Below, piece by piece: positions 10,147 through 58,125 of a stretch of DNA of 64,000 bases. The stretch is from Arenicola marina (Eukaryota > Annelida > Polychaeta > Arenicolidae). The number at the start of each line of letters is the position of its first letter. The stretch's first letter is position 1. Made by a program: the position numbers and the translations under genes. The stretch is taken from positions 36,198,820-36,262,819 of the forward strand of contig OZ025261.1 of assembly GCA_964019135.1 (NCBI GenBank), in the 5' to 3' direction. The notes under the pieces were generated by a model. The model ran no database searches. It was not told the DNA's origin and saw nothing but the letters and a program-made list of their open reading frames with translations.

Positions 10147-10487
10147 TCAGCTGCATGGTTGAGCTGTGACCATTACCACGATGACCCGCGACTGTTCTCT
10201 AGCTCTACTTTGCTCTCCTATAATATCCATACGCCATCAGGACCACGTCATGGAGCCGCCAAGATCTCCAGAGGGAGGGTGGGGGGGTGGGGCTTTATGA
10301 CGACTCTATAATGAAATAACGATATCCGATAGGCTAGTTGGTGTCACGAGAGCTGGTGTTATTCACTCAAAGACTAATTAGAAACTATCAACGATATTTA
10401 TCTGTATGATAATTATATTGGACAAGTGGGGTGTTCTAATTAATGTTGTAGAGTTGCTGGTTTACTTTTTTTCATGTCATGATTCAG
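10147..10487 (+). repeat. Left flank of duplicated block, copy A
   Basis: This 340-bp unique sequence, starting TCAGCTGCATGGTTGAG, recurs at 11488-11830 at an offset of 1341 bp and about 95% identity by eye. In both places it leads straight into a 33-bp array. Copy A begins within a few bases of the end of the CpG-dense array. It may be the non-repetitive part of an unrecognised non-autonomous element, or simply a segmental duplication. Confidence 0.9.
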
Positions 10488-11175
10488 GTTGAATAAAACG
10501 CTATTTGCTCACAATAACAGGTTGAATAAAACGCTATTTGCTCACCATACCAGGTTGAATAAAACGCTATTTTCACACCAAAGCAGCTTGAATAAAACGC
10601 TATTTTCACACCATACCATGTTGAATAAAACGCTATTTGCACATCATATCAGGTTGAATAAAACGTTATTTGCACACCATACAAGGTTGAATAAAACGCT
10701 ATTTTCACACCAAAGCAGGTTGAAAAAACGCGATTTGCTCACCATAGCAGGTTGAATAAAACGCCATTTGCACACCATACCATGTTGAATAAAACGCTAT
10801 TTGCACACCATACCAGATTAAATAAAACGCTATTTGCACACCATACCAGGTTAAATAAAACGCTATTTGCACACCATACCAGGTTGAATAAAACGCTATT
10901 TGCACACCATGCCAGATTGAATAAAACGCTATTTGCTCACCATACCATGTTGAATAAAACGCTATTTTCACACCATACCAGGTTGAATAAAACGCTATTT
11001 GCACACAATACTAGGTTGAATAAAACGCTATTTGCACACCATACCAGGTTGAATAAAACGCTATTGGCTTACCATACCAGGTTGAATAAAACGCTATTTG
11101 CACACCATATTAGGTTTAAAAAAACGCTATTTGCTCACCATACTAGGTTGAATAAAGCGCTATTTGCTCACCATA
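10488..11175 (+). repeat. 33-bp AT-rich minisatellite, array A, about 21 units
   Basis: Units read GGTTGAATAAAACGCTATTT followed by GCACACCATACCA or variants. Because 33 is divisible by three, the plus strand stays open in the LNKTLFAHHTR frame for many units, interrupted once by a small length change near 10725. The minus strand is open as well, which argues against coding. Every unit holds AATAAA, so the array presents about 20 potential poly(A) signals on the plus strand. Confidence 0.95.
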
Positions 11176-11487: not shown

Positions 11488-11830
11488 TCAGCTGCATGGT
11501 TGAGTTGTGACCATTACCACGATGACCCGCGACTGTTCTCTAGCTCTACTTTGCTCTCCTATAATATCCATACGCCATCGGGACCACGTCATGGGGCCGC
11601 CAAGATCTCCAGAGGGACGGTGGGGGGGGGGGGGGGCTTTATAATGACTCTATAATGAAATAACGATATCCGATAGCCTAGCTGGTGTCACGAGAGCTGG
11701 TGTTATTCACTCAAAGACGAATTAGAAACTATCAACGATATTTACCTATATGATAATTATATTGGACAAGTGGGGTGTTCTAATTAATGTTGTAGAGTTG
11801 CTGGTTTACTTTTTTTTATGTCGTGATTCA
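11488..11830 (+). repeat. Left flank of duplicated block, copy B
   Basis: Second copy of the 10147-10487 sequence. Differences include a longer G-run (11622-11636, 15 Gs) where copy A has two shorter G-runs split by a T, plus scattered substitutions. Confidence 0.9.
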
Positions 11831-12196
11831 GGTTGAATAAAACGCTATTTGCTCACCATACCAGGTTGAATGAAACGTTATTTGCACACCAAACCATGTT
11901 GAATAAAACGTTTTTTTCACACCGTACCAGGTTGAATAAAACGCTATTTGCACACAATACCATGTTGAATAAAACGCTATTTGCTCACCATACCAGGTTG
12001 AATAAAACGCTATTTGCTCACCCTACCAGTTTGAATAAAACGCTATTTGCACACCGTACCAGGTTGAATAAAACGCTATTTGCACACCGTACCAGATTAA
12101 GTAAAACGCTATTTGCACACCATACCAGGTTGAATAAAACACTATTTGCACACCATACCAGGTTGAATAAAACGCTATTTGCACACCATACCAATT
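11831..12196 (+). repeat. 33-bp AT-rich minisatellite, array B, about 11 units
   Basis: Same unit as array A and same junction with the left flank, but half the copy number. The difference (about 21 against 11 units) shows that copy number changed after duplication. The array ends in ACCAATTTGCGAAATTGCG, unlike array A. Confidence 0.95.
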
Positions 12197-22610: not shown

Positions 22611-23450
22611 GGGGGGGGGTTGTACCAAATGTATTAATAGACCAGCAAAGAGATTTACATCGTTTAAAAACGTTCTGACATGTTTTGTACCATTAAAAAG
22701 CCGACTTTGATAGTCTGCTCTACTTCACTAAAATAAAGCAAAATTGGCGGAAAACTCATTCATAGAGACTCCGTTGCGCTCATTTGTCATAATGCCACTA
22801 CAATACGGAATTGCATGCTGGCCCTGACGCTGGTAGGCCCATGGAGTTTCTCGGGGATATGGTCACGCCATGGGTCGAAGCAAATCGGAAGCGAACAATC
22901 GCTAAATTTACATCGATCGAATTGTATAATTTCCATTAGCTTTTATTCCTATCCTGTTCAGCTTATTATAGACGAAAAGATTCATCACATTTTTCAACTG
23001 TTTTGCCATTTCCTTCGATTGTGTAGGCCGTACCCATTATCTTAATTTTCCCGTGTCCTTGTTTGCCCATCATATACCAGCGTGGGCGGAATAAAATGTC
23101 ATCCACATTGCCGGCTGTAGGTGTGCCTAGTTGTAGGCCACAGTACGGCCAGTCCTTTTACGCTGATAAATAATACTAGTCCTGGTCATTAATTCATGCT
23201 GGCACTATCCGGAATTACTTAGACAACATATAATAAGGCACCTAAATAAAGTGAGCTGATGGAACAGGTTTGTTTTGTTCCAACCCAAAAAGAGACAATT
23301 GCAACAAGCTGGCTTCTAATTCACTGAGCTGTAGTTGCGTTATGGCATGGTGATAGACCAACCATGGGGCGCAGTGCCCCGCCCCGCACCCTAGACCCTT
23401 ATCCCTCGATATGGTAAACATATCAACGCCACTTGCTGAACGGCTGAACT
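22611..23450. other. Unique flank of the giant array
   Basis: Unique sequence with a G-run at about 22609-22619 on its left edge. The last 40 bp lead into the first recognisable 33-bp unit. No gene is identified. Confidence 0.5.
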
Positions 23451-26400
23451 CCAGAAACTCCTGCCGCTTGTTAGTCTGACTCCAGGAACTCCTGGCCCGC
23501 TTGTTAGTCTGACTCCAGGAACTCCTGGCCCGCTTGTTAGTCTGACTCCAGGAACTCCTGGCCCGCTTGTTAGTCTGACTCCAGGAACTCCTGCCGCTTG
23601 TTAGTCTGACTCCAGGAACTCCTGGCCCGCTTGTTAGTCTGACTCCAGGAACTCCTGGCCCGCTTGTTAGTCTGACTCCAGGAACTCCTGCCGCTTGTTA
23701 GTCTGACTCCAGGAACTCCTGGCCCGCTTGTTAGTCTGACTCCAGGAACTCCTGGCCCGCTTGTTAGTCTGACTCCAGGAACTCCTGGCTCGCTTGTTAG
23801 TCTGACTCCAGGGACTCCTGGCCCGCTTGTTAGTCTGACTCCAGAAACTCCTGGCCCGCTTGTTAGTCTGACTCCAGGAACTCCTGGCCCGCTTGTTAGT
23901 CTGACTCCAGGAACTCCTGCCGCTTGTTAGTCTGACTCCAGGAACTCCTGGCCCGCTTGTTAGTCTGACTCCAGGAACTCCTGGCCCGCTTGTTAGTCTG
24001 ACTCCAGGAACTCCTGGCCCGCTTGTTAGTCTGACTCCAGGAACTCCTGGCCCGCTTGTTAGTCTGACTCCAGGAACTCCTGGCTCGCTTGTTAGTCTGA
24101 CTCCAGGGACTCCTGGCCCGCTTGTTAGTCTGACTCCAGAAACTCCTGGCCCGCTTGTTAGTCTGACTCCAGGAACTCCTGGCCCGCTTGTTAGTCTGAC
24201 TCCAGGAACTCCTGCCGCTTGTTAGTCTGACTCCAGGAACTCCTGCCGCTTGTTAGTCTGACTCCAGGAACTCCTGGCCCGCTTGTTAGTCTGACTCCAG
24301 GAACTCCTGCCGCTTGTTAGTCTGACTCCAGGAACTCCTGGCTCGCTTGTTAGTCTGACTCCAGAAACTTCTCCCGCTTGTTAGTCTGACTCCAGGGACT
24401 CCTGGCCCGCTTGTTAGTCTGACTCCAGGAACTCCTGGCCCGCTTGTTAGTCTGACTCCAGGAACTCCTGGCTCGCTTGTTAGTCTGACTCCAGGGACTC
24501 CTGGCCCGCTTGTTAGTCTGACTCCAGAAACTCCTGGCCCGCTTGTTAGTCTGACTCCAGGAACTCCTGGCCCGCTTGTTAGTCTGACTCCAGGAACTCC
24601 TGCCGCTTGTTAGTCTGACTCCAGGAACTCCTGGCCCGCTTGTTAGTCTGACTCCAGGAACTCCTGGCCCGCTTGTTAGTCTGACTCCAGGGACTCCTGG
24701 CCCGCTTGTTAGTCTGACTCCAGAAACTCCTGGCCCGCTTGTTAGTCTGACTCCAGGAACTCCTGGCCCGCTTGTTAGTCTGACTCCAGGAACTCCTGGC
24801 CCGCTTGTTAGTCTGACTCCAGGAACTCCTGGCCCGCTTGTTAGTCTGACTCCAGGGACTCCTGGCCCGCTTGTTAGTCTGACTCCAGAAACTCCTGGCC
24901 CGCTTGTTAGTCTGACTCCAGGAACTCCTGGCCCGCTTGTTAGTCTGACTCCAGGAACCCCTGCCGCTTGTTAGTCTGACTCCAGGAACTCCTGCCGCTT
25001 GTTAGTCTGACTCCAGGAACTCCTGGCCCGCTTGTTAGCCTGACTCCAGGAACTCCTGGCCCGCTTGTTAGTCTGACTCCAGGAACTCCTGGCCCGCTTG
25101 TTAGTCTGACTCCAGGAACTCCTGGCCCGCTTGTTAGTCTGACTCCAGGAACTCCTGCCGCTTGTTAGTCTGACTCCAGGAACTCCTGCCGCTTGTTAGT
25201 CTGACTCCAGGAACTCCTGGCCCGCTTGTTAGTGTGACTCCAGGAACTCCTGGCCCGCTTGTTAGTCTGACTCCAGGAACTCCTGGCCCGCTTGTTAGTC
25301 TGACTCCAGGAACTCCTGCCGCTTGTTAGTCTGACTCCAGGAACTCCTGCCGCTTGTTAGTCTGACTCCAGGAACTCCTGGCCCGCTTGTTAGTCTGACT
25401 CCAGGAACTCCTGGCCCGCTTGTTAGTCTGACTCCAGGAACTCCTGCCGCTTGTTAGTCTGACTCCAGGAACTCCTGGCCCGCTTGTTAGTCTGACTCCA
25501 GGAACTCCTGGCCCGCTTGTTAGTCTGACTCCAGGAACTCCTGGCTCACTTGTTAGTCTGACTCCAGGGACTCCTGGCCCGCTTGTTAGTCTGACTCCAG
25601 AAACTTCTGGCCCGCTTGTTAGTCTGACTCCAGGAACTCCTGGCCCGCTTGTTAGTCTGACTCCAGGAACTCCTGCCGCTTGTTAGTCTGACTCCAGGAA
25701 CTCCTGGCCCGCTTGTTAGTCTGACTCCAGGAACTCCTGGCCCGCTTGTTAGTCTGACTCCAGGAACTCCTGGCCCGCTTGTTAGTCTGACTCCAGGAAC
25801 TCCTGGCCCGCTTGTTAGTCTGACTCCAGGAACTCCTGGCTCGCTTGTTAGTCTGACTCCAGGGACCCCTGGCCCGCTTGTTAGTCTGACTCCAGAAACT
25901 CCTGGCCCGCTTGTTAGTCTGACTCCAGGAACTCCTGGCCCGCTTGTTAGTCTGACTCCAGGAACTCCTGCCGCTTGTTAGTCTGACTCCAGGAACTCCT
26001 GCCGCTTGTTAGTCTGACTCCAGGAACTCCTGGCCCGCTTGTTAGTCTGACTCCAGGAACTGCTGCCGCTTGTTAGTCTGACTCCAGGAACTCCTGGCTC
26101 GCTTGTTAGTCTGACTCCAGAAACTTCTCCCGCTTGTTAGTCTGACTCCAGGGACTCCTGGCCCGCTTGTTAGTCTGACTCCAGGAACTCCTGGCCCGCT
26201 TGTTAGTCTGACTCCAGGAACTCCTGGCTCGCTTGTTAGTCTGACTCCAGGGACTCCTGGCCCGCTTGTTAGTCTGACTCCAGGAACTCCTGGCCCGCTT
26301 GTTAGTGTGACTCCAGGAACTCCTGGCCCGCTTGTTAGTCTGACTCCAGGAACTCCTGGCCCGCTTGTTAGTCTGACTCCAGGAACTCCTGCCGCTTGTT

Positions 26401-29193
26401 AGTCTGACTCCAGGAACTCCTGGCCCGCTTGTTAGTCTGACTCCAGGAATTCCTGGCCCGCTTGTTAGTCTGACTCCAGGGACTCCTGGCCCGCTTGTTA
26501 GTCTGACTCCAGAAACTCCTGGCCCGCTTGTTAGTCTGACTCCAGGAACTCCTGGCCCGCTTGTTAGTCTGACTCCAGGAACTCCTGGCCCGCTTGTTAG
26601 TCCGACTCCAGGAACTCCTGGCCCGCTTGTTAGTCTGACTCCAGGGACTCCTGGCCCGCTTGTTAGTCTGACTCCAGAAACTCCTGGCCCGCTTGTTAGT
26701 CTGACTCCAGGAACTCCTGGCCCGCTTGTTGGTCTGACTCCAGGAACTCCTGCCGCTTGTTAGTCTGACTCCAGTAACTCCTGCCGCTTGTTAGTCTGAC
26801 TCCAGGAACTCCTGGCCCGCTTGTTAGTCTGACTCCAGGAACTCCTGGCCCGCTTGTTAGTCTGACTCCAGGGACTCCTAGCCCGCTTGTTAGTCTGACT
26901 CCAGAAACCCCTGGCCCGCTTGTTAGTCTGACTCCAGGAACTCCTGGCCCGCTTGTTAGTCTGACTCCAGGAACTCCTGCCGCTTGTTAGTCTGACTCCA
27001 GGAACTCCTGCCGCTTGTTAGTCTGACTCCAGGAACTCCTGGCCCGCTTGTTAGTCTGACTCCAGGAACTTCTCCCGCTTGTTAGTCTGACTCCAGGAAC
27101 TCCTGCCGCTTGTTAGTCTGACTCCAGGAACTCCTGGCCCGCTTGTTAGTGTGACTCCAGGAACTCCTGGCCCGCTTGTTAGTCTGACTCCAGGAACTCC
27201 TGGCCCGCTTGTTAGTCTGACTCCAGGAACTCCTGGCCCGCTTGTTAGTCTGACTCCAGGAACTCCTGGCCCGCTTGTTAGTCTGACTCCAGAAACTCCT
27301 GGCCCGCTTGTTAGTCTGACTCCAGGAACTTCTCCCGCTTGTTAGTCTGACTCCAGGAACTCCTGCCGCTTGTTAGTCTGACTCCAGGAACTCCTGGCCC
27401 GCTTGTTAGTGTGACTCCAGGAACTCCTGGCCCGCTTGTTAGTCTGACTCCAGGAACTTCTCCCGCTTGTTAGTCTGACTCCAGGAACTCCTGCCGCTTG
27501 TTAGTCTGACTCCAGGAACTCCTGGCCCGCTTGTTAGTCTGACTCCAGGAACTCCTGGCCCGCTTGTTAGTCTGACTCCAGGAACTCCTGGCCCGCTTGT
27601 TAGTCTGACTCCAGGAACTCCTGGCCCGCTTGTTAGTCTGACTCCAGGAACTCCTGGCCCGCTTGTTAATCTGACTCCAGGAACCCCTGGCCCGCTTGTT
27701 AGTCTGACTCCAGGAACTCCTGGCCCGCTTGTTAGTCTGACTCCAGGAACTCCTGGCCCACTTGTTAGTCTGACTCCAGGAACTCCTGGCCCGCTTGTTA
27801 GTCTGACTCCAGGAACTCCTGGCCCGCTTGTTAGTCTGACTCCAGGAACTCCTGGCCCGCTTGTTAGTCTGACTCCAGAAACTCCTGGCCCGCTTGTTAG
27901 TCTGACTCCAGGAACTTCTCCCGCTTGTTAGTCTGACACCAGGAACTCCTGCCGCTTGTTAGTCTGACTCCAGGAACTCCTGGCCCGCTTGTTAGTGTGA
28001 CTCCAGGAACTCCTGGCCCGCTTGTTAGTCTGACTCCAGGAACTTCTCCCGCTTGTTAGTCTGACTCCAGGAACTCCTGCCGCTTGTTAGTCTGACTCCA
28101 GGAACTCCTGGCCGGCTTGGTAGTGTGACTCCAGGAACTCCTGGCCCGCTTGTTAGTCTGACTCCAGAAACTCCTGGCCCGCATGTTAGTCTGACTCCAG
28201 GAACTCCTGGCTCGCTTGTTAGTCTGACTCCAGGAACTCCTGGCCCGCTTGTTAGTCTGACTCCAGGAACTCCTGGCTCGCTTGTTAGTCTGACTCCAGA
28301 AACTTCTCCCGCTTGTTAGTCTGACTCCAGGAACTCCTGCCGCTTGTTAGTCTGACTCCAGGAACTCCTGGCCCGCTTGTTAGTCTGACTCCAGGAACTC
28401 CTGGCTCGCTTGTTAGTGTGACTCCAGGAACTCCTGGCCCGCTTGTTAGTCTGACTCCAGGAACTCCTGGCCCGCTTGTTAGTCTGACTCCAGGAACTCC
28501 TGGCCCGCTTGTTAGTCTGACTCCAGGAACTCCTGGCCCGCTTGTTAGTCTGACTCCAGAAACTCCTGGCCCGCTTGTTAGTCTGACTCCAGGAACTTCT
28601 CCCGCTTGTTAGTCTGACTCCAGGAACTCCTGCCGCTTGTTAGTCTGACTCCAGGAACTCCTGGCCCGCTTGTTAGTGTGACTCCAGGAACTCCTGGCCC
28701 GCTTGCTGGTCTGACTCCAGGAACTTCTCCCGCTTGTTAGTCTGACTCCAGGAACTCCTGCCGCTTGTTAGTCTGACTCCAGGAACTCCTGGCCCGCTTG
28801 TTAGTCTGACTCCAGGAACTCCTGGCCCGCTTGTTAGTCTGACTCCAGGAACTCCTGGCCCGCTTGTTAGTCTGACTCCAGGAACTCCTGGCCCGCTTGT
28901 TAGTCTGACTCCAGGAACTCCTGGCCCGCTTGTTAGTCTGACTCCAGAAACTCCTGGCCCGCTTGTTAGTCTGACTCCAGGAACTTCTCCCGCTTGTTAG
29001 TCTGACTCCAGGAACTCCTGCCGCTTGTTAGTCTGACTCCAGGAACTCCTGGCCCGCTTGTTAGTGTGACTCCAGGAACTCCTGGCCCGCTTGTTAGTCC
29101 GACTCCAGGAACTCCTCCCGCTTGTTAGTCTGACTCCAGGAACTCCTGCCGCTTGTTAGTCTGACTCCAGGAACTCCTGGCCCGCTTGTTAGT

Positions 29194-32100
29194 GTGACTC
29201 CAGGAACTCCTGGCCCGCTTGTTAGTCTGACTCCAGGAACTCCTGGCCCGCTTGTTAGTCTGACTCCAGGAACTCATGGCCCGCTTGTTAGTCTGACTCC
29301 AGGAACTCCTGGCCCGCTTGTTAATCTGACTCCAGGAACCCCTGGCTCGCTTGTTAGTCTGACTCCAGGAACTCCTGGCCCGCTTGTTAGTCTGACTCCA
29401 GGAACTCCTGGCCCACTTGTTAGTCTGACTCCAGGAACTCCTGGCCCGCTTGTTAGTCTGACTCCAGGAACTCCTGGCCCGCTTGTTAGTCTGACTCCAG
29501 GAACTCCTGGCCCGCTTGTTAGTCTGACTCCAGGAACTCCTGGCCCGCTTGTTAGTCTGACTCCAGGAACTTCTCCCGCTTGTTAGTCTGACTCCAGGAA
29601 CTCCTGCCGTTTGTTAGTCTGACTCCAGGAACTCCTGGCCCGCTTGTTAGTGTGACTCCAGGAACTCCTGGCCCGCTTGTTAGTGTGACTCCAGAAACTC
29701 CTGGCCCGCTTGTTAGTCTGACTCCAGAAACTCCTGGCCCGCATGTTAGTCTGACTCCAGGAACTCCTGGCTCGCTTGTTAGTCTGACTCCAGGAACTCC
29801 TGGCCCGCTTGTTAGTCTGACTCCAGGAACTCCTGGCTCGCTTGTTAGTCTGACTCCAGAAAATGCTCCCGCTTGTTAGTCTGACTCCAGGAACTCCTGC
29901 CGCTTGTTAGACTGACTCCAGGAACTCCTGGCCCGCTTGTTAGTCTGACTCCAGGAACTCCTGGCCCGCTTGTTAGTCTGACTCCAGAAACTCCTGGCCC
30001 GCTTGTTAGGCTAACTCCAGAAACTCCTGGCCCGCATGTTAGTCTGACTCCAGAAACTCCTGGCCCGCATGTTAGTCTGACTCCAAGAACTCCTGGCCCG
30101 CTTGTTAGTCTGACTCCAGGAACTCCTGGCTCGCTTGTTAGTCTGACTCCAGAAACTCCTGGCTCGCATGTTAGTCTGACTCCAAGAACTCCTGGCCCGC
30201 TTGTTAGTCTGACTCCAGGAACTCCTGGCTCGCTTGTTAGTCTGACTCCAGGGACTCCTGGCCCGCTTGTTAGTCTGACTCCAGGAACTCCTGGCCCGCT
30301 TGTTAGTGTGACTCCAGGAACTCCTGGCCCGCTTGTTAGTCTGACTCCAGGGACTCCTGGCCCGCTTGTTAGTCTGACTCCAGGAACTCCTGGCCCGCTT
30401 GTTAGTCTGACTCCAGGAACTCCTGGCCCGCTTGTTAGTCTGACTCCAGGAACTCCTGCCGCTTGTTAGTCTGACTCCAGGAACTCCTGGCTCGCTTGTT
30501 AGTCTGACTCCAGGAACTCCTGGCCCGTTTGTTAGTCTGACTCCAGGAACTCCTGGCCCGCTTGTTAGTCTGACTCCAGGAACTCCTGGCCCGTTTGTTA
30601 GTCTGACTCCAGGAACTCCTGGCCCGCTTGTTAGTCTGACTCCAGGAACTCCTGGCCCGTTTGTTAGTCTGACTCCAGGAACTCCTGGCTCGCTTGTTAG
30701 TCTGACTCCAGGAACTCCTGGCTCGCTTGTTAGTCTGACTCCAGGAACTCCTGGCCCGTTTGTTAGTCTGACTCCAGGAACTCCTGGCCCGCTTGTTAGT
30801 CTGACTCCAGGAACTCCTGGCCCGTTTGTTAGTCTGACTCCAGGAACTCCTGGCCCGCTTGTTAGTCTGACTCCAGGAACTCCTGGCCCGTTTGTTAGTC
30901 TGACTCCAGGAACTCCTGGCCCGCTTGTTAGTCTGACTCCAGGAACTCCTGCCGCTTGTTAGTCTGACTCCAGGAACTCCTGGCTCGCTTGTTAGTCTGA
31001 CTCCAGGAACTCCTGGCTCGCTTGTTAGTCTGACTCCAGGAACTCCTGGCCCGCTTGTTAGTGTGACTCCAGGAACTCCTGGCCCGCTTGTTAGTCTGAC
31101 TCCAGGGACTCCTGGCCCGCTTGTTAGTCTGACTCCAGGAACTCCTGGCCCGCTTGTTAGTCTGACTCCAGGAACTCCTGGCCCGCTTGTTAGTCTGACT
31201 CCAGGAACTCCTGCCGCTTGTTAGTCTGACTCCAGGAACTCCTGGCTCGCTTGTTAGTCTGACTCCAGGAACTCCTGGCCCGCTTGTTAGTCTGACTCCA
31301 GGAACTCCTGGCCCGCTTGTTAGTCTGACTCCAGGAACTCCTGGCCCGCTTGTTAGTCTGACTCCAGGAACTCCTGGCCCGCTTGTTAGTCTGACTCCAG
31401 GAACTCCTGCCGCTTGTTAGTCTGACTCCAGGAACTCCTGGCCCGCTTGTTAGTCTGACTCCAGGAACTCCTGGCCCGCTTGTTAGTGTGACTCCAGGAA
31501 CTCCTGCCGCTTGTTAGTCTGACTCCAGGAACTCCTGGCTCGCTTGTTAGTCTGACTCCAGGAACTCCTGGCCCGCTTGTTAGTGTGACTCCAGGAACTC
31601 CTGGCCCGCTTGTTAGTCTGACTCCAGGAACTCCTGGCCCGCTTGTTAGTCTGACTCCAGGAACTCCTGCCGCTTGTTAGTCTGACTCCAGGAACTCCTG
31701 GCTCGCTTGTTAGTCTGACTCCAGGAACTCCTGGCCCGCTTGTTAGTGTGACTCCAGGAACTCCTGGCCCGCTTGTTAGTCTGACTCCAGGAACTCCTGC
31801 CGCTTGTTAGTCTGACTCCAGGAACTCCTGGCTCGCTTGTTAGTCTGACTCCAGGAACTCCTGGCCCGCTTGTTAGTCTGACTCCAGAAACTCCTGGCTC
31901 GCTTGTTAGTCTGACTCCAGGAACTCCTGGCTCGCTTGTTAGTCTGACTCCAGAAACTCATGGCTCGCATGTTAGTCTGACTCCAAGAACTCCTGGCCCG
32001 CTTGTTAGTCTGACTCCAGGAACTCCTGGCTCGCTTGTTAGTCTGACTCCAGGGACTCCTGGCCCGCTTGTTAGTCTGACTCCAGGAACTCCTGGCCCGC

Positions 32101-35100
32101 TTGTTAGTGTGACTCCAGGAACTCCTGGCCCGCTTGTTAGTCTGACTCCAGGGACTCCTGGCCCGCTTGTTAGTCTGACTCCAGGAACTCCTGGCCCGCT
32201 TGTTAGTCTGACTCCAGGAACTCCTGGCCCGCTTGTTAGTCTGACTCCAGGAACCCCTGGCTCGCTTGTTAGTCTGACTCCAGGAACTCCTGGCCCGCTT
32301 GTTAGTCTGACTCCAGGAACTCCTGGCCCACTTGTTAGTCTGACTCCAGGAACTCCTGGCCCGCTTGTTAGTCTGACTCCAGGAACTCCTGGCCCGCTTG
32401 TTAGTCTGACTCCAGGAACTCCTGGCCCGCTTGTTAGTCTGACTCCAGGAACTCCTGGCCCGCTTGTTAGTCTGACTCCAGGAACTTCTCCCGCTTGTTA
32501 GTCTGACTCCAGGAACTCCTGCCGTTTGTTAGTCTGACTCCAGGAACTCCTGGCCCGCTTGTTAGTGTGACTCCAGGAACTCCTGGCCCGCTTGTTAGTG
32601 TGACTCCAGAAACTCCTGGCCCGCTTGTTAGTCTGACTCCAGAAACTCCTGGCCCGCATGTTAGTCTGACTCCAGGAACTCCTGGCTCGCTTGTTAGTCT
32701 GACTCCAGGAACTCCTGGCCCGCTTGTTAGTCTGACTCCAGGAACTCCTGGCTCGCTTGTTAGTCTGACTCCAGAAAATGCTCCCGCTTGTTAGTCTGAC
32801 TCCAGGAACTCCTGCCGCTTGTTAGACTGACTCCAGGAACTCCTGGCCCGCTTGTTAGTCTGACTCCAGGAACTCCTGGCCCGCTTGTTAGTCTGACTCC
32901 AGAAACTCCTGGCCCGCTTGTTAGGCTGACTCCAGAAACTCCTGGCCCGCATGTTAGTCTGACTCCAGAAACTCCTGGCCCGCATGTTAGTCTGACTCCA
33001 AGAACTCCTGGCCCGCTTGTTAGTCTGACTCCAGGAACTCCTGGCTCGCTTGTTAGTCTGACTCCAGAAACTCCTGGCTCGCATGTTAGTCTGACTCCAA
33101 GAACTCCTGGCCCGCTTGTTAGTCTGACTCCAGGAACTCCTGGCTCGCTTGTTAGTCTGACTCCAGGGACTCCTGGCCCGCTTGTTAGTCTGACTCCAGG
33201 AACTCCTGGCCCGCTTGTTAGTGTGACTCCAGGAACTCCTGGCCCGCTTGTTAGTCTGACTCCAGGGACTCCTGGCCCGCTTGTTAGTCTGACTCCAGGA
33301 ACTCCTGGCCCGCTTGTTAGTCTGACTCCAGGAACTCCTGGCCCGCTTGTTAGTCTGACTCCAGGAACTCCTGCCGCTTGTTAGTCTGACTCCAGGAACT
33401 CCTGGCTCGCTTGTTAGTCTGACTCCAGGAACTCCTGGCCCGTTTGTTAGTCTGACTCCAGGAACTCCTGGCCCGCTTGTTAGTCTGACTCCAGGAACTC
33501 CTGGCCCGTTTGTTAGTCTGACTCCAGGAACTCCTGGCCCGCTTGTTAGTCTGACTCCAGGAACTCCTGGCCCGTTTGTTAGTCTGACTCCAGGAACTCC
33601 TGGCTCGCTTGTTAGTCTGACTCCAGGAACTCCTGGCTCGCTTGTTAGTCTGACTCCAGGAACTCCTGGCCCGTTTGTTAGTCTGACTCCAGGAACTCCT
33701 GGCCCGCTTGTTAGTCTGACTCCAGGAACTCCTGGCCCGTTTGTTAGTCTGACTCCAGGAACTCCTGGCCCGCTTGTTAGTCTGACTCCAGGAACTCCTG
33801 GCCCGTTTGTTAGTCTGACTCCAGGAACTCCTGGCCCGCTTGTTAGTCTGACTCCAGGAACTCCTGCCGCTTGTTAGTCTGACTCCAGGAACTCCTGGCT
33901 CGCTTGTTAGTCTGACTCCAGGAACTCCTGGCTCGCTTGTTAGTCTGACTCCAGGAACTCCTGGCCCGCTTGTTAGTGTGACTCCAGGAACTCCTGGCCC
34001 GCTTGTTAGTCTGACTCCAGGGACTCCTGGCCCGCTTGTTAGTCTGACTCCAGGAACTCCTGGCCCGCTTGTTAGTCTGACTCCAGGAACTCCTGGCCCG
34101 CTTGTTAGTCTGACTCCAGGAACTCCTGCCGCTTGTTAGTCTGACTCCAGGAACTCCTGGCTCGCTTGTTAGTCTGACTCCAGGAACTCCTGGCCCGCTT
34201 GTTAGTCTGACTCCAGGAACTCCTGGCCCGCTTGTTAGTCTGACTCCAGGAACTCCTGGCCCGCTTGTTAGTCTGACTCCAGGAACTCCTGGCCCGCTTG
34301 TTAGTCTGACTCCAGGAACTCCTGCCGCTTGTTAGTCTGACTCCAGGAACTCCTGGCCCGCTTGTTAGTCTGACTCCAGGAACTCCTGGCCCGCTTGTTA
34401 GTGTGACTCCAGGAACTCCTGCCGCTTGTTAGTCTGACTCCAGGAACTCCTGGCTCGCTTGTTAGTCTGACTCCAGGAACTCCTGGCCCGCTTGTTAGTG
34501 TGACTCCAGGAACTCCTGGCCCGCTTGTTAGTCTGACTCCAGGAACTCCTGGCCCGCTTGTTAGTCTGACTCCAGGAACTCCTGCCGCTTGTTAGTCTGA
34601 CTCCAGGAACTCCTGGCTCGCTTGTTAGTCTGACTCCAGGAACTCCTGGCCCGCTTGTTAGTGTGACTCCAGGAACTCCTGGCCCGCTTGTTAGTCTGAC
34701 TCCAGGAACTCCTGCCGCTTGTTAGTCTGACTCCAGGAACTCCTGGCTCGCTTGTTAGTCTGACTCCAGGAACTCCTGGCCCGCTTGTTAGTCTGACTCC
34801 AGAAACTCCTGGCTCGCTTGTTAGTCTGACTCCAGGAACTCCTGGCTCGCTTGTTAGTCTGACTCCAGAAACTCCTGGCTCGCATGTTAGTCTGACTCCA
34901 AGAACTCCTGGCCCGCTTGTTAGTCTGACTCCAGGAACTCCTGGCTCGCTTGTTAGTCTGACTCCAGGGACTCCTGGCCCGCTTGTTAGTCTGACTCCAG
35001 GAACTCCTGGCCCGCTTGTTAGTGTGACTCCAGGAACTCCTGGCCCGCTTGTTAGTCTGACTCCAGGGACTCCTGGCCCGCTTGTTAGTCTGACTCCAGG

Positions 35101-36752
35101 AACTCCTGGCCCGCTTGTTAGTCTGACTCCAGGAACTCCTGGCCCGCTTGTTAGTCTGACTCCAGGAACTCCTGCCGCTTGTTAGTCTGACTCCAGGAAC
35201 TCCTGGCTCGCTTGTTAGTCTGACTCCAGGAACTCCTGGCCCGTTTGTTAGTCTGACTCCAGGAACTCCTGGCCCGCTTGTTAGTCTGACTCCAGGAACT
35301 CCTGGCCCGTTTGTTAGTCTGACTCCAGGAACTCCTGGCCCGCTTGTTAGTCTGACTCCAGGAACTCCTGGCCCGTTTGTTAGTCTGACTCCAGGAACTC
35401 CTGGCTCGCTTGTTAGTCTGACTCCAGGAACTCCTGGCTCGCTTGTTAGTCTGACTCCAGGAACTCCTGGCCCGTTTGTTAGTCTGACTCCAGGAACTCC
35501 TGGCCCGCTTGTTAGTCTGACTCCAGGAACTCCTGGCCCGTTTGTTAGTCTGACTCCAGGAACTCCTGGCCCGCTTGTTAGTCTGACTCCAGGAACTCCT
35601 GGCCCGTTTGTTAGTCTGACTCCAGGAACTCCTGGCCCGCTTGTTAGTCTGACTCCAGGAACTCCTGCCGCTTGTTAGTCTGACTCCAGGAACTCCTGGC
35701 TCGCTTGTTAGTCTGACTCCAGGAACTCCTGCCGCTTGTTAGTCTGACTCCAGGAACTCCTGGCCCGCTTGTTAGTGTGACTCCAGGAACTCCTGGCCCG
35801 CTTGTTAGTCTGACTCCAGGAACTCCTGGCCCGCTTGTTAGTCTGACTCCAGGAACTCATGGCCCGCTTGTTAGTCTGACTCCAGGAACTCCTGGCCCGC
35901 TTGTTAATCTGACTCCAGGAACCCCTGGCTCGCTTGTTAGTCTGACTCCAGGAACTCCTGGCCCGCTTGTTAGTCTGACTCCAGGAACTCCTGGCCCACT
36001 TGTTAGTCTGACTCCAGGAACTCCTGGCCCGCTTGTTAGTCTGACTCCAGGAACTCCTGGCCCGCTTGTTAGTCTGACTCCAGGAACTCCTGGCCCGCTT
36101 GTTAGTCTGACTCCAGGAACTCCTGGCCCGCTTGTTAGTCTGACTCCAGGAACTTCTCCCGCTTGTTAGTCTGACTCCAGGAACTCCTGCCGTTTGTTAG
36201 TCTGACTCCAGGAACTCCTGGCCCGCTTGTTAGTGTGACTCCAGGAACTCCTGGCCCGCTTGTTAGTGTGACTCCAGAAACTCCTGGCCCGCTTGTTAGT
36301 CTGACTCCAGAAACTCCTGGCCCGCATGTTAGTCTGACTCCAGGAACTCCTGGCTCGCTTGTTAGTCTGACTCCAGGAACTCCTGGCCCGCTTGTTAGTC
36401 TGACTCCAGGAACTCCTGGCTCGCTTGTTAGTCTGACTCCAGAAAATGCTCCCGCTTGTTAGTCTGACTCCAGGAACTCCTGCCGCTTGTTAGACTGACT
36501 CCAGGAACTCCTGGCCCGCTTGTTAGTCTGACTCCAGGAACTCCTGGCCCGCTTGTTAGTCTGACTCCAGAAACTCCTGGCCCGCTTGTTAGGCTGACTC
36601 CAGAAACTCCTGGCCCGCATGTTAGTCTGACTCCAGAAACTCCTGGCCCGCATGTTAGTCTGACTCCAAGAACTCCTGGCCCGCTTGTTAGTCTGACTCC
36701 AGGAACTCCTGGCTCGCTTGTTAGTCTGACTCCAGAAACTCCTGGCTCGCAT
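29194..36752. repeat. Higher-order repeat blocks offset by 2915 and 3668 bp
   Basis: The translated 75-residue stretch starting at 29652 recurs identically at 32567 and 36235. The 130-residue stretch at 29194 recurs identically at 35777, and the 97-residue minus-strand stretch at 32791 recurs at 36459. The offsets are 2915 and 3668 bp and are shared by neighbouring markers, so whole blocks of about 90-110 units were copied. Confidence 0.92.
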
Positions 36753-39700
36753 GTTAGTCTGACTCCAAGAACTCCTGGCCCGCTTGTTAGTCTGACTCCA
36801 GGAACTCCTGGCTCGCTTGTTAGTCTGACTCCAGGGACTCCTGGCCCGCTTGTTAGTCTGACTCCAGGAACTCCTGGCCCGCTTGTTAGTGTGACTCCAG
36901 GAACTCCTGGCCCGCTTGTTAGTCTGACTCCAGGGACTCCTGGCCCGCTTGTTAGTCTGACTCCAGGAACTCCTGGCCCGCTTGTTAGTCTGACTCCAGG
37001 AACTCCTGGCCCGCTTGTTAGTCTGACTCCAGGAACTCCTGCCGCTTGTTAGTCTGACTCCAGGAACTCCTGGCTCGCTTGTTAGTCTGACTCCAGGAAC
37101 TCCTGGCCCGTTTGTTAGTCTGACTCCAGGAACTCCTGGCCCGCTTGTTAGTCTGACTCCAGGAACTCCTGGCCCGTTTGTTAGTCTGACTCCAGGAACT
37201 CCTGGCCCGCTTGTTAGTCTGACTCCAGGAACTCCTGGCCCGTTTGTTAGTCTGACTCCAGGAACTCCTGGCTCGCTTGTTAGTCTGACTCCAGGAACTC
37301 CTGGCTCGCTTGTTAGTCTGACTCCAGGAACTCCTGGCCCGTTTGTTAGTCTGACTCCAGGAACTCCTGGCCCGCTTGTTAGTCTGACTCCAGGAACTCC
37401 TGGCCCGTTTGTTAGTCTGACTCCAGGAACTCCTGGCCCGCTTGTTAGTCTGACTCCAGGAACTCCTGGCCCGTTTGTTAGTCTGACTCCAGGAACTCCT
37501 GGCCCGCTTGTTAGTCTGACTCCAGGAACTCCTGCCGCTTGTTAGTCTGACTCCAGGAACTCCTGGCTCGCTTGTTAGTCTGACTCCAGGAACTCCTGGC
37601 TCGCTTGTTAGTCTGACTCCAGGAACTCCTGGCCCGCTTGTTAGTGTGACTCCAGGAACTCCTGGCCCGCTTGTTAGTCTGACTCCAGGGACTCCTGGCC
37701 CGCTTGTTAGTCTGACTCCAGGAACTCCTGGCCCGCTTGTTAGTCTGACTCCAGGAACTCCTGGCCCGCTTGTTAGTCTGACTCCAGGAACTCCTGCCGC
37801 TTGTTAGTCTGACTCCAGGAACTCCTGGCTCGCTTGTTAGTCTGACTCCAGGAACTCCTGGCCCGCTTGTTAGTCTGACTCCAGGAACTCCTGGCCCGCT
37901 TGTTAGTCTGACTCCAGGAACTCCTGGCCCGCTTGTTAGTCTGACTCCAGGAACTCCTGGCCCGCTTGTTAGTCTGACTCCAGGAACTCCTGCCGCTTGT
38001 TAGTCTGACTCCAGGAACTCCTGGCCCGCTTGTTAGTCTGACTCCAGGAACTCCTGGCCCGCTTGTTAGTGTGACTCCAGGAACTCCTGCCGCTTGTTAG
38101 TCTGACTCCAGGAACTCCTGGCTCGCTTGTTAGTCTGACTCCAGGAACTCCTGGCCCGCTTGTTAGTGTGACTCCAGGAACTCCTGGCCCGCTTGTTAGT
38201 CTGACTCCAGGAACTCCTGGCCCGCTTGTTAGTCTGACTCCAGGAACTCCTGCCGCTTGTTAGTCTGACTCCAGGAACTCCTGGCTCGCTTGTTAGTCTG
38301 ACTCCAGGAACTCCTGGCCCGCTTGTTAGTGTGACTCCAGGAACTCCTGGCCCGCTTGTTAGTCTGACTCCAGGAACTCCTGCCGCTTGTTAGTCTGACT
38401 CCAGGAACTCCTGGCTCGCTTGTTAGTCTGACTCCAGGAACTCCTGGCCCGCTTGTTAGTCTGACTCCAGAAACTCCTGGCTCGCTTGTTAGTCTGACTC
38501 CAGGAACTCCTGGCTCGCTTGTTAGTCTGACTCCAGAAACTCCTGGCTCGCATGTTAGTCTGACTCCAAGAACTCCTGGCCCGCTTGTTAGTCTGACTCC
38601 AGGAACTCCTGGCTCGCTTGTTAGTCTGACTCCAGGGACTCCTGGCCCGCTTGTTAGTCTGACTCCAGGAACTCCTGGCCCGCTTGTTAGTGTGACTCCA
38701 GGAACTCCTGGCCCGCTTGTTAGTCTGACTCCAGGGACTCCTGGCCCGCTTGTTAGTCTGACTCCAGGAACTCCTGGCCCGCTTGTTAGTCTGACTCCAG
38801 GAACTCCTGGCCCGCTTGTTAGTCTGACTCCAGGAACTCCTGCCGCTTGTTAGTCTGACTCCAGGAACTCCTGGCTCGCTTGTTAGTCTGACTCCAGGAA
38901 CTCCTGGCCCGTTTGTTAGTCTGACTCCAGGAACTCCTGGCCCGTTTGTTAGTCTGACTCCAGGAACTCCTGGCCCGCTTGTTAGTCTGACTCCAGGAAC
39001 TCCTGGCCCGTTTGTTAGTCTGACTCCAGGAACTCCTGGCCCGCTTGTTAGTCTGACTCCAGGAACTCCTGGCCCGTTTGTTAGTCTGACTCCAGGAACT
39101 CCTGGCTCGCTTGTTAGTCTGACTCCAGGAACTCCTGGCTCGCTTGTTAGTCTGACTCCAGGAACTCCTGGCCCGTTTGTTAGTCTGACTCCAGGAACTC
39201 CTGGCCCGCTTGTTAGTCTGACTCCAGGAACTCCTGGCCCGTTTGTTAGTCTGACTCCAGGAACTCCTGGCCCGCTTGTTAGTCTGACTCCAGGAACTCC
39301 TGGCCCGTTTGTTAGTCTGACTCCAGGAACTCCTGGCCCGCTTGTTAGTCTGACTCCAGGAACTCCTGCCGCTTGTTAGTCTGACTCCAGGAACTCCTGG
39401 CTCGCTTGTTAGTCTGACTCCAGGAACTCCTGGCTCGCTTGTTAGTCTGACTCCAGGAACTCCTGGCCCGCTTGTTAGTGTGACTCCAGGAACTCCTGGC
39501 CCGCTTGTTAGTCTGACTCCAGGGACTCCTGGCCCGCTTGTTAGTCTGACTCCAGGAACTCCTGGCCCGCTTGTTAGTCTGACTCCAGGAACTCCTGGCC
39601 CGCTTGTTAGTCTGACTCCAGGAACTCCTGCCGCTTGTTAGTCTGACTCCAGGAACTCCTGGCTCGCTTGTTAGTCTGACTCCAGGAACTCCTGGCCCGC

Positions 39701-42100
39701 TTGTTAGTCTGACTCCAGGAACTCCTGGCCCGCTTGTTAGTCTGACTCCAGGAACTCCTGGCCCGCTTGTTAGTCTGACTCCAGGAACTCCTGGCCCGCT
39801 TGTTAGTCTGACTCCAGGAACTCCTGCCGCTTGTTAGTCTGACTCCAGGAACTCCTGGCCCGCTTGTTAGTCTGACTCCAGGAACTCCTGGCCCGCTTGT
39901 TAGTGTGACTCCAGGAACTCCTGCCGCTTGTTAGTCTGACTCCAGGAACTCCTGGCTCGCTTGTTAGTCTGACTCCAGGAACTCCTGGCCCGCTTGTTAG
40001 TGTGACTCCAGGAACTCCTGGCCCGCTTGTTAGTCTGACTCCAGGAACTCCTGGCCCGCTTGTTAGTCTGACTCCAGGAACTCCTGCCGCTTGTTAGTCT
40101 GACTCCAGGAACTCCTGGCCCGTTTGTTAGTCTGACTCCAGGAACTCCTGGCCCGCTTGTTAGTCTGACTCCAGGAACTCCTGGCCCGTTTGTTAGTCTG
40201 ACTCCAGGAACTCCTGGCCCGCTTGTTAGTCTGACTCCAGGAACTCCTGGCCCGTTTGTTAGTCTGACTCCAGGAACTCCTGGCCCGCTTGTTAGTCTGA
40301 CTCCAGGAACTCCTGCCGCTTGTTAGTCTGACTCCAGGAACTCCTGGCTCGCTTGTTAGTCTGACTCCAGGAACTCCTGGCTCGCTTGTTAGTCTGACTC
40401 CAGGAACTCCTGGCTCGCTTGTTAGTCTGACTCCAGGGACTCCTGGCCCGCTTGTTAGTCTGACTCCAGGAACTCCTGGCCCGCTTGTTAGTGTGACTCC
40501 AGGAACTCCTGGCCCGCTTGTTAGTCTGACTCCAGGGACTCCTGGCCCGCTTGTTAGTCTGACTCCAGGAACTCCTGGCCCGCTTGTTAGTCTGACTCCA
40601 GGAACTCCTGGCCCGCTTGTTAGTCTGACTCCAGGAACTCCTGCCGCTTGTTAGTCTGACTCCAGGAACTCCTGGCTCGCTTGTTAGTCTGACTCCAGGA
40701 ACTCCTGGCCCGTTTGTTAGTCTGACTCCAGGAACTCCTGGCCCGTTTGTTAGTCTGACTCCAGGAACTCCTGGCCCGCTTGTTAGTCTGACTCCAGGAA
40801 CTCCTGGCCCGTTTGTTAGTCTGACTCCAGGAACTCCTGGCCCGCTTGTTAGTCTGACTCCAGGAACTCCTGGCCCGTTTGTTAGTCTGACTCCAGGAAC
40901 TCCTGGCTCGCTTGTTAGTCTGACTCCAGGAACTCCTGGCTCGCTTGTTAGTCTGACTCCAGGAACTCCTGGCCCGTTTGTTAGTCTGACTCCAGGAACT
41001 CCTGGCCCGCTTGTTAGTCTGACTCCAGGAACTCCTGGCCCGTTTGTTAGTCTGACTCCAGGAACTCCTGGCCCGCTTGTTAGTCTGACTCCAGGAACTC
41101 CTGGCCCGTTTGTTAGTCTGACTCCAGGAACTCCTGGCCCGCTTGTTAGTCTGACTCCAGGAACTCCTGCCGCTTGTTAGTCTGACTCCAGGAACTCCTG
41201 GCTCGCTTGTTAGTCTGACTCCAGGAACTCCTGGCTCGCTTGTTAGTCTGACTCCAGGAACTCCTGGCCCGCTTGTTAGTGTGACTCCAGGAACTCCTGG
41301 CCCGCTTGTTAGTCTGACTCCAGGGACTCCTGGCCCGCTTGTTAGTCTGACTCCAGGAACTCCTGGCCCGCTTGTTAGTCTGACTCCAGGAACTCCTGGC
41401 CCGCTTGTTAGTCTGACTCCAGGAACTCCTGCCGCTTGTTAGTCTGACTCCAGGAACTCCTGGCTCGCTTGTTAGTCTGACTCCAGGAACTCCTGGCCCG
41501 CTTGTTAGTCTGACTCCAGGAACTCCTGGCCCGCTTGTTAGTCTGACTCCAGGAACTCCTGGCCCGCTTGTTAGTCTGACTCCAGGAACTCCTGGCCCGC
41601 TTGTTAGTCTGACTCCAGGAACTCCTGCCGCTTGTTAGTCTGACTCCAGGAACTCCTGGCCCGCTTGTTAGTCTGACTCCAGGAACTCCTGGCCCGCTTG
41701 TTAGTGTGACTCCAGGAACTCCTGCCGCTTGTTAGTCTGACTCCAGGAACTCCTGGCTCGCTTGTTAGTCTGACTCCAGGAACTCCTGGCCCGCTTGTTA
41801 GTGTGACTCCAGGAACTCCTGGCCCGCTTGTTAGTCTGACTCCAGGAACTCCTGGCCCGCTTGTTAGTCTGACTCCAGGAACTCCTGCCGCTTGTTAGTC
41901 TGACTCCAGGAACTCCTGGCTCGCTTGTTAGTCTGACTCCAGGAACTCCTGGCCCGCTTGTTAGTGTGACTCCAGGAACTCCTGGCCCGCTTGTTAGTCT
42001 GACTCCAGGAACTCCTGCCGCTTGTTAGTCTGACTCCAGGAACTCCTGGCTCGCTTGTTAGTCTGACTCCAGGAACTCCTGGCCCGCTTGTTAGTCTGAC
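33166..42100. repeat. Nested higher-order repeat of about 1.8 kb, five periods
   Basis: The marker GGCTCGC...CCAGGGACTCC occurs at about 33166, 34967, 36834, 38635 and 40436, with spacings of 1801, 1867, 1801 and 1801 bp. A second marker, GGCTCGCATGTTAGTCTGAC, occurs at about 33080, 34881, 36748 and 38549 with spacings of 1801, 1867 and 1801. The 1867-bp interval is two 33-bp units longer. The 3668-bp offset is 1801 plus 1867, so the larger repeat is a dimer of the smaller. Confidence 0.9.
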
Positions 42101-42504
42101 TCCAGAAACTCCTGGCTCGCTTGTTAGTCTGACTCCAGGAACTCCTGGCCCGCTTGTTAGTCTGACTCCAAGAACTCCTGGCCCGCTTGTTAGTCTGACT
42201 CCAGGAACTCCTGGCCCGCTTGCTAATCTGACTCCAGGAACTCCTGGCTCGCTTGTTAGTCTGACTCCAGGAACCCCTGGCCCGCTTGTTAGTCTGACTC
42301 CAGGAACTCCTGGCCCGCTTGTTAATCTGACTCCAGGAACTCCTGGCCCGCTTGTTAGTCTGACTCCAGGAACTCCTGGCCCGCTTGTTAGTCTGACTCC
42401 AGGAACTCCTGGCCCGTTTGTTAGTCTGACTCCAGGAACTCCTGGCCCGCTTGTTAGTCTGACTCCAGGAACTCCTGGCCCGTTTGTTAGTCTGACTAAC
42501 TAAG

Positions 42505-54460: not shown

Positions 54461-56282
54461 GGCCCCCCCCAGGCCCCCAGGCCACCAAAGCCCCAGACCC
54501 CCAGACCCCCAGACCTCAACACCCCCAGACCCCCACACCCCAGGCCCCCAGACCCCCTGATCCCCAGACCTCCAGACCCCCAGACCTCTAGGCCCCCAGC
54601 ACCCCCAAGCTCCTAAGCACAGACCTCCAGACCCCCAGACCTCCAGGCCCCCAGCACTCCCAGGCCCCCAGACCTTCAGACCTCCAGACCTCCAGGCCCC
54701 CAGAAGCCCCAAGCCCCCAGGCCCCCAGGCCCCCAGGCCCCAGGCCCCCAAGCACCCCAGGCCCCCAGGCCCCCAGACATCCAGGCCCCTAGGCCCCAGG
54801 CCCCCAAGCCCCCAGACCCCCAGGCCCCCAGAAGCCCCAAGCCCCCAGGCCCTCAGGCCCCCAGGCCCCCAGGCCCCCAAGCACCCCAGGCCCCCAGGCC
54901 CCCCCCCAGACATCCAGGCCCCTAGGCCCCAGGCCCCCAAGCCCCCCAGACCCCCAGACCCCCGGGCCCCTAGACCCGCCCCCCAGGCCCCCAGACCCCC
55001 AGGCCCCCAAGCCCCCAGACCTCCAAGCCCCCAGGCCCCTAGGCCCCTAGGTCCCAGGCCCCCAGACTCCCAGGCCCCCAGACCCCCAGCCCCCAGGTCC
55101 CCAGGCCCCCTAGCCCCCAGGCCCCCAGACCTCTAGGCCCCCAGGCCCCTAGGCTCCTAGGCCCCAGGCCCCCAGACTCCCAGGCCCCCAGACCCCCAGC
55201 CCCCCAGGTCCCCAGGCCCCCGAGCCCCCAGGCCCCCAGACCTCTAGGCCCCCAGGCCCCTAGGCCCCAGGCCCCTAGGCCCCCAGGCCCCTAGGCCCCC
55301 GGCCCCCAGGCCCCCAGGCCCTCCAGCCCCCAGACCCCTAGGCCCCCAGGCCCCCAGTCCCCAGGCCCCAAGGCCCCCAAGCCCCCAAGCCCCTAGACCT
55401 CCAGACTCTCGGGCCCCTAGGCCCCTAGCCCTCCAGGCCCCCAGACCCCCAGGCCCCCAAGCCCCCAGACCTCCAAGCCCCCAGGCCCCCAGGCCCCTAG
55501 GTCCCAGGCCCCCAGACTCCCAGGCCCCCAGCCCCCCAGGTCCCCAGGCCCCCGAGCCCCCAGGCCCCCAGACCTTTAGGCCCCCAGGACCCTAGGCCCC
55601 CAGGCCCCTAGGCCCCTAGGCCCCCGGCCCCCAGGCCCCCAGGCCCCCAGGCCCCAGGCCCCCAGCCTCCAGGCCCCCAGGCCCCCAAGCCCCCAGACCC
55701 CCAGGCCCCCAGGCCCCAGCCCCCAGGCCCCAAGGCCCCCAGACCCCCAGGCCCTCAAGCCCCCAGACCCCCAGACCTCTAGGCCCCCAGGCCCCTAGGC
55801 CCCCAGGCCACTAGGCCCTCGGCCCCCAGGCCCCCAGGCTGCTCCAGCCCCCAGACCCCTAGGCCCCCAGGCCCCCAGACCCCCAGGCCCCCAAGCCCTC
55901 AGACCTCCAAGCCCCCAGGCCCCCAGGCCCTAGGCCCCAGGCCCCCAGACTCCCAGGCCCCCGAGTCCCCAGGCCCCCATACCTTTAGGCCCCCAGGACC
56001 CTAGGCCCCCAGGCCCCTAGGCCCCTAGGCCCCCGGCCCCCAGGCCCCCAGGCCCCCAGGCCCCCAGACCTTTAGGCCCCAGGACCCTAGGCCCCCAGGC
56101 CCCCAGGCCCCCAAGCCCCCAGACCCCCAGGCCCCCAGGCCCCCAGCCCCCAGGCCCCCAGCCCCCAGGCCCCAAGGCCCCAGACCTCCAAATCCCCAGG
56201 CCCCCAGGCCCCTAGGCCCCCAGGACCCCAGACTCCCAGGCCCCTAAGCCCCGAGGCCCCCAAGCACCCCCTAGGCCCTAGC
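54461..56282. repeat. C-rich (AGGCCCCC)n-type array, 1.8 kb
   Basis: Built on an 8-bp unit CCAGGCCC with variants CCAGACCC, CCTAGGCC and CCAAGCCC. Larger blocks recur, for example AGACTCCCAGGCCCCCAGAC near 55067 and 55168. The minus strand has G4-G5 runs every 8 bp, so it can form G-quadruplexes along its whole length, and the plus strand can form i-motifs. Minus-strand frames (GAWGLGAWGPGGLG) are repeat artefacts. Confidence 0.95.
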
Positions 56283-57547: not shown

Positions 57548-58125
57548 TGTGGTGTGGCGTGGCGTGGCGTGGCGTGGCGTGGCGGTGGCGTGGCGTGGCG
57601 TGGCGTGGCGTGGCGTGGCGTGGCGTGGCGTGGCGTGGCGTGGCGTGGCGTGGCGTGGCGTGGCGTGGCGTGGCGTGGCGTGGCGTGGCGTGGCGTGGCG
57701 TGGCGTGGCGTGGCGTGGCGTGGCGTGGCGTGGCGGTGGCGTGGCGTGGCGTGGCGTGGCGTGGCGTGGCGTGGCGTGGCGTGGCGTGGCGTGGCGTGGC
57801 GTGGCGTGGCGTGGCGTGGCGTGGCGTGGCGTGGCGTGGCGTGGCGTGGCGTGGCGTGGCGTGGCGTGGCGTGGCGTGGCGGTGGCGTGGCGTGGCGTGG
57901 CGTGGCGTGGCGTGGCGGTGCGTGGCGTGGCGTGGCGTGGTGTGGCGTGGCGTGGCGTGGCGTGGCGTGGCGTGGCGTGGCGTGGCGTGGCGTGGCGGTG
58001 GCGTGGCGTGGCGTGGCGTGGCGTGGCGTGGCGTGGCGTGCGTGGCGTGGCGTGGCGTGGCGTGGCGTGGCGTGGCGTGGCGTGGCGTGGCGTGGCGTGG
58101 CGTGGCGTGGCGTGGCGTGGCGTGG
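57548..58125. repeat. (GTGGC)n pentanucleotide array, about 115 units
   Basis: Almost pure GTGGC repeats, with a few insertions or losses (GTGGCGGTGGC, near 57580, 57730, 57880 and 57995; CGTGCGTGG near 58040). All frames on both strands are open for 190-249 codons (WRGVA on plus, RHATP on minus) because the unit has no stops. The right end runs into a SINE A-box. Confidence 0.97.

What the first reader, a model, noticed from the sequence alone, without database searches (positions are those of the whole stretch)
23451..42496. 19-kb minisatellite with three nested levels of repeat organisation
A 33-bp unit is organised into blocks of about 1801 bp (one is 1867), which pair into a 3668-bp dimer, with a further 2915-bp offset on the left. 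The spacing of two independent variant markers gives the same numbers. This is the alpha-satellite style of higher-order repeat, built from a minisatellite-sized unit. Identity between blocks implies very recent unequal exchange or rolling-circle amplification.
Basis: seen in the sequence. Interest (0 to 1): 0.7.

Follow-up and report, generated by a model that had tools for sequence, protein, structure and literature searches.

The report
Minisatellite grown by repeated block duplication
A 19-kb stretch of an animal chromosome, probably from a segmented worm, is a 33-base sequence repeated 583 times, and more than half of it was made by recently copying whole blocks of repeats; this is an unusually clear case of a known process.

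Summary
The array is real: 23448-42494, 583 complete units (487 of 33 bp, 96 of 31 bp), 43 unit types. The reading needs revision: there is no regular dimer. Two modules, C (31 units, 1013 bp) and B (55 units, 1801 bp), occur as C-B-b, C-B-b, C-B-b-b, each b cut at a different point. The "1867 block" is b (854) + C (1013); 3668 is C+B+b. Units 261-571 (10.2 of 19.0 kb) are ten copied blocks plus two new units. The left part holds two older, mutated duplications of similar step (1756 and 1655 bp). All units are whole, so joins are in register. Best explanation: repeated homologous block duplication inside the array, recent at the right. The unit was found at this locus only in an 867-Mb genome, probably an annelid. 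In 14 pieces of the same chromosome tandem arrays take about 27%, and 7 of 13 other arrays also show some block copying. New member of a known kind.

The parts
23448..42494 (+). whole minisatellite array: 583 units, 487 of 33 bp and 96 of 31 bp, 43 types
23479..25236 (+). left block 1 of an old 54-unit duplication
   Evidence: 33 of 50 units identical at lag 54, maximum 24 in 300 shuffles; 38 edits in 1725 bp
25237..26994 (+). left block 2, diverged copy of block 1
27059..27838 (+). first copy of a second old duplication, step 51 units (1655 bp)
   Evidence: 6 edits over 24 units, null minimum 11 over 400 shuffles; 6 of 780 bp
28714..29493 (+). second copy of the step-51 duplication; runs into module C1
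29133..30145 (+). module C1, 31 units, 1013 bp
30146..31946 (+). module B1, 55 units, 1801 bp
31947..32243 (+). b1: first 9 units of B, one substitution
32244..33060 (+). module C2, last 25 units of C, 817 bp
33061..34861 (+). module B2, identical to B1
34862..35715 (+). b2: first 26 units of B, 854 bp
35716..36728 (+). module C3, 31 units, one substitution from C1
36729..38529 (+). module B3, identical to B1 and B2
38530..40101 (+). b3: B with one extra unit, cut after 48 units
40102..40396 (+). nine-unit patch matching the inside of B, where ten other units would be expected (conversion-like)
   Evidence: string and phrase list; the replacement reading is inference
40397..42131 (+). b4: copy of b3 at lag 1801, carrying the same extra unit, 53 units (first two and last unit missing)
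42132..42494 (+). right end, 11 units without long block copies

Best explanation
A non-coding, single-locus minisatellite that grows by homologous block duplication inside the array. A break or stalled fork in the array is repaired from a misaligned stretch of the same array (sister chromatid or homologue), by unequal exchange or synthesis-dependent strand annealing, so that blocks of roughly ten to ninety units are copied in register. Inferred order: two older duplications on the left and in the middle (steps 54 and 51 units, since mutated); then duplication of B (55 units); then two superblock duplications C-B-b with different break points; then one extra unit in b3, duplication of b3 to b4, and a nine-unit conversion-like patch. 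Shown: the blocks, their identity, relative ages by divergence, the unbroken register, one locus only. Inferred: the order of the recent events and the repair pathway. No function of the sequence is needed or seen.
For: All 583 units are whole, 31 or 33 bp, with no odd-length unit: the joins are homologous. Units 261-582 are 20 copy phrases against a shuffle mean of 144. B1=B2=B3 over 1801 bp; C1 and C3 differ by one base in 1013, while units within C+B differ by 5.2%. Differently cut b copies (9, 26, 48 and 53 units) show separate break points. Singleton unit types: 17 of 175 left units against 3 of 408 right units (Fisher p 3e-7); with one copy of C+B kept it is 18 of 175 against 8 of 86, so the asymmetry comes from recent copying and not from different founder diversity. 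Older duplications at 2.2% and 0.8% edits add earlier age layers. In the held sequence 7 of 13 other arrays also have an observed/shuffled ratio above 2.
Against: No second allele, read or relative could be examined, so no duplication event has been seen and none can be polarised with an outgroup. The event order is one parsimonious reading, not the output of a formal reconstruction. A replication template switch that stays in register would leave the same trace. 6 of 13 other arrays show no clear block copying (ratios 0.92-1.99).
Confidence: 0.82

Rival explanations
1. Regular higher-order repeat array of alpha-satellite type, with a constant multi-unit period kept homogeneous by concerted exchange, perhaps centromeric.
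For: Between-block identity far exceeds within-block unit identity.
Against: No constant period: successive C copies are 2915 and 3668 bp apart and each b has another length. The genome count of the 33-bp unit within 3 mismatches, 486, equals the count in the window, so it is not shared between chromosomes. The array is 19 kb, in a region full of unrelated minisatellites.
Confidence: 0.05
2. Rolling-circle amplification of an excised circle, reinserted in the array.
For: Identical tandem copies of B and of C-B.
Against: Rolling circle predicts whole copies of one length; the copies are cut at different points, and duplications of several ages have different steps.
Confidence: 0.05
3. Assembly artefact: allelic versions of the array concatenated, or read-overlap errors in an exact repeat.
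For: Exact repeats up to 3037 bp are hard to assemble from short or noisy reads; no reads are available here.
Against: No N in the window; no further copy of the 33-bp unit found elsewhere in the 762 contigs; small distinguishing marks (P/k, O/w, the extra unit, differently cut b copies) anchor the copies; the older diverged duplications on the left are not explained by it.
Confidence: 0.08

Closest known systems
Human hypervariable minisatellites (MS32, CEB1, MSY1)
   Same: 9-100 bp units with variant types; PMC2599865 (passages seen, abstract parts included) reports intra-allelic duplications and complex events at MS32 and CEB1 and favours synthesis-dependent strand annealing for MSY1.
   Different: MSY1 length mutants involve 1-3 units; here exact copies reach 92 units. 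Germline mutation cannot be observed here.
16q24.1 33-bp minisatellite near FOXF1 (PMC4411736, passages seen)
   Same: 33-bp unit, 8.7 kb, no other location listed in human, very different sizes between individuals and species.
   Different: Another sequence; no block map in the passages seen.
Alpha-satellite higher-order repeats (PMC8122249, passages seen)
   Same: Blocks of diverged monomers nearly identical between copies.
   Different: Monomer of about 171 bp, centromeric, arrays shared by groups of chromosomes, constant period (recalled); here a 33-bp unit, one locus, varying block lengths.
Earthworm intronic minisatellites in metallothionein genes (PMC12783039, passages seen)
   Same: Annelid minisatellites with clustered monomer types in long-read data.
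   Different: Those have mirrored monomers and lie in an intron; here one orientation, and no gene was identified at the array.

Membership tests
Minisatellite | tandem units of about 9-100 bp in an array of 0.5-30 kb | tested here: met
   33/31-bp units, 19.0 kb
Minisatellite | interspersed unit variants | tested here: met
   43 types among 583 units
Hypervariable minisatellite (VNTR) | length polymorphism between individuals | not testable with these tools
   one assembly only
Higher-order repeat | between-block identity above within-block monomer identity | tested here: met
   B copies identical; units in B differ by 4.2%
Higher-order repeat | multi-monomer block iterated at a constant period | tested here: not met
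   steps 2915 and 3668; b copies of 9, 26, 48 and 53 units
Centromeric satellite | family shared by several chromosomes | tested here: not met
   486 genome matches to the 33-bp unit = 486 in the window
Centromeric satellite | bound by centromeric histone | not testable with these tools
   needs ChIP
Coding tandem-repeat protein | open frame through the array | tested here: not met
   180-402 stops per frame in six frames; longest open stretch 360 aa; the 31-bp units shift the frame

The most novel reading that the evidence does not exclude
The array has a preferred duplication step of about 1.65-1.80 kb. Three block duplications in separate parts of the array and of different age have steps of 54, 51 and 55 units (1756, 1655 and 1801 bp); in the founder part (units 0-260, steps of 15 units or more, 24-unit windows) only the first two pass the shuffle test, and the third is the B-b step. 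This would point to a fixed-length intermediate (a repair-synthesis tract, a chromatin loop or a replication unit) that sets the block size. Against it: the two superblock steps are 89 and 112 units, n is 3, and the longest exact repeats of the four other arrays inspected lie at 1100, 476, 910 and 3102 bp, though shorter ones fall at 1690 bp in the 65-bp array and 1584 bp in the 66-bp array.
Probability: 0.12. Interest if true: 0.5.

Novelty: new member of a known kind. Interest (0 to 1): 0.27.

Why it matters
It is a legible record of how a minisatellite grows: several age layers of block duplication, with breakpoints at unit resolution, in one array. It also flags a chromosome in which about a quarter of 14 sampled pieces is tandem array, a good place to measure turnover with long reads.

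Tried and rejected
Sea urchin origin was my first guess; the Bindin family search gave nothing anywhere, controls included, so it shows nothing. The mitochondrial contig reads COX1 open over 519 aa under codes 4, 5, 9, 13 and 21 but broken under code 2, with COX2, COX3, an ND6-like frame (below Pfam's cut-off), CYTB and ATP6 following on the same strand. That this is the annelid, probably clitellate, order is recalled, and the species is not identified.

C as a diverged half of B, which would have rescued the dimer reading, was rejected (123 of 500 shuffles as good; 23 of 500 with a tail two units longer). Left blocks as old B copies were rejected (407 and 461 of 500 shuffles as good). An older kinship of left part and founder stays open but unproven: a unit-level cross-match was reached by 6 of 300 shuffles, and the best ungapped 30-unit pair cost 26, below the minimum 27 of 40 shuffles, but in the scan over all steps such pairs (steps 192, 195, 224) were not significant (p about 0.64). 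One test weaker than my reading: the lag-54 identity over the whole left part was reached by 8 of 500 shuffles; the windowed tests were decisive.

A hairpin from the 6-bp inverted repeat in the unit: 397 of 583 units keep it, but stem positions are not spared (21 of 51 substitutions among the 33-bp types fall in 12 of 33 positions), and folding z-scores are -1.72 and -1.30. The two hits on other chromosomes (68% identity) are other short-unit arrays; that on C12 gave 17 matches, all within 1.4 kb. Subtelomeric position rejected: the window is 5.3 Mb from the contig end.

Full report
Observation. Tandem Repeats Finder places a 33-bp array at 23448-42497. Cutting it at the unit boundary gives 583 whole units, 487 of 33 bp and 96 of 31 bp, of 43 types, at 23448-42494. 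Maximal exact self-matches are 3037 bp at offset 3668, 1946 bp at 2915 and 6583, 1538 bp at 1801, 1207 bp at 1834 and 917 bp at 1867. Ten shuffles of unit order give a longest exact repeat of 251 bp on average (with 528 pieces cut at an exact anchor).

Anatomy. The unit string from unit 175 onwards resolves into two modules: C, 31 units and 1013 bp, and B, 55 units and 1801 bp. The order is C1 B1 b1, C2 B2 b2, C3 B3 b3, a nine-unit patch, and b4, where b1 to b3 are B cut after 9, 26 and 48 units (b3 with one extra unit) and b4 has 53 units, lacking the first two and the last. So the 'dimer' is not a pair of sister blocks; C does not clearly resemble the B tail (123 of 500 shuffles align as well, 23 of 500 for a slightly longer tail).

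Ages. B1, B2 and B3 are identical; C1 and C3 differ by one base; b1 has one base change; b3 and b4 share one extra unit. Units inside B differ from each other by 4.2%, and inside C+B by 5.2%. Units 261-571, 10185 of 19047 bp, are covered by 12 phrases: ten copies and two single new units; the whole of 261-582 takes 20 phrases, against 132-157 in 200 shuffles. In the part with one copy of C+B (units 0-260) only two offsets beat all of 400 shuffles: 54 units (4 edits over 24 units; 38 edits in 1725 bp over 53 units, 2.2%) and 51 units (6 edits over 24 units, 780 bp, 0.8%); the shuffle minimum was 11, and 13 in 400 regional shuffles. That scan used steps of 15 units or more and 24-unit windows, so shorter-range copying is not covered. 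Farther along, the 51-unit pair shows 4.3% without gaps. Singleton types are 17 of 175 on the left and 3 of 408 on the right (p 3e-7), but 18 of 175 and 8 of 86 when one copy of C+B is kept: the founder material is about equally diverse, and recent copying makes the right half look young.

Mechanism. No unit of odd length occurs, so copying stayed in register over homologous units. The different cut points, block sizes and ages fit repeated unequal exchange or synthesis-dependent strand annealing. The patch at 40102-40396, nine units where ten others are expected, looks like a conversion event; this is inference. Absolute dates are not given, because no mutation rate for the organism is at hand.

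Context. The window is G000:C14:36198820-36262819 of an 867,369,267-bp, 762-contig genome; C14 is 41,529,850 bp. The 33-bp unit is found 486 times in the genome within 3 mismatches, and 486 times in the window; the 31-bp units were not searched for elsewhere. Three stretches in the window match the reverse transcriptase domain. No frame is open through the array. In 14 spaced 10-kb pieces of C14, tandem arrays of at least 500 bp and ten copies (no filter on period) take 27% on average, from 0 to 99% per piece; other chromosomes were not sampled. Of 14 arrays of at least 1.5 kb and 20 copies in the held sequence, the target has the highest ratio of longest exact repeat to shuffled (12.1), then the 34-bp array that starts left of the window (6.4) and a 40-bp array in the left flank (4.4); 8 of 14, the target included, exceed 2, and 6 lie between 0.92 and 1.99. 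The target is also the longest array held, which by itself favours a high value; some others run off their 10-kb pieces.

Literature. Nine searches in an open-access library. I saw no report of this locus or of a block map like it in the listings; that is no proof of absence. Amynthas aspergillum, an earthworm, is reported with 2.65% minisatellite (PMC12130307, passages), well below the 27% in the C14 pieces, though methods and sampling differ. MSY1 work favours synthesis-dependent strand annealing (PMC2599865, passages). Passages on complex tandem repeats in human genomes (PMC10502081) and on mosaic repeats (PMC10118999) were also seen.

Verdict. A real, well-resolved example of minisatellite growth by block duplication; a three-level higher-order repeat of constant period is not what is there.

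Noticed in passing
L022-L035, C14 of the window's genome: Tandem arrays of 500 bp or more fill 27% of 14 spaced 10-kb pieces. Pieces at 10, 15, 20 and 37 Mb have none; those at 0, 5, 30, 34, 35 and 36.5 Mb have 39-99%; those at 25, 36, 38 and 40 Mb 6-24%. This may hint at enrichment away from the chromosome middle, but the sample is small.
   Followed up: partly
window 1-7697 and L016 8922-9998: 34-bp minisatellite of 8.8 kb with an exact 1111-bp block repeat at offset 1100.
   Followed up: partly
window 62056-64000 and L019 1-5989: 65-bp minisatellite of 7.9 kb crossing the window's right edge, with weaker block copying.
   Followed up: partly
L025 1-5989: 66-bp array with many exact block repeats (703 bp at 3102; 486 bp at 2838), a second candidate for nested block structure.
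   Followed up: no
window 10485-11175 and 11829-12193: Two separate arrays of one 33-bp unit (CAGGTTGAATAAAACGCTATTTGCACACCATAC), a different sequence from the main array's unit.
   Followed up: no
window 54466-56262 and 57549-58125: An 8-bp CCCCCAGG-type array of 1.8 kb and a 5-bp GTGGC array of 0.6 kb close together.
   Followed up: no
L001 1282-2900: Degenerate minisatellite stretches, mostly of 32-bp unit, on C12, sharing a TGTTAGTC-GAC-TCCAG-like core with the 33-bp unit; the 17 genome matches to its unit all lie there.
   Followed up: partly
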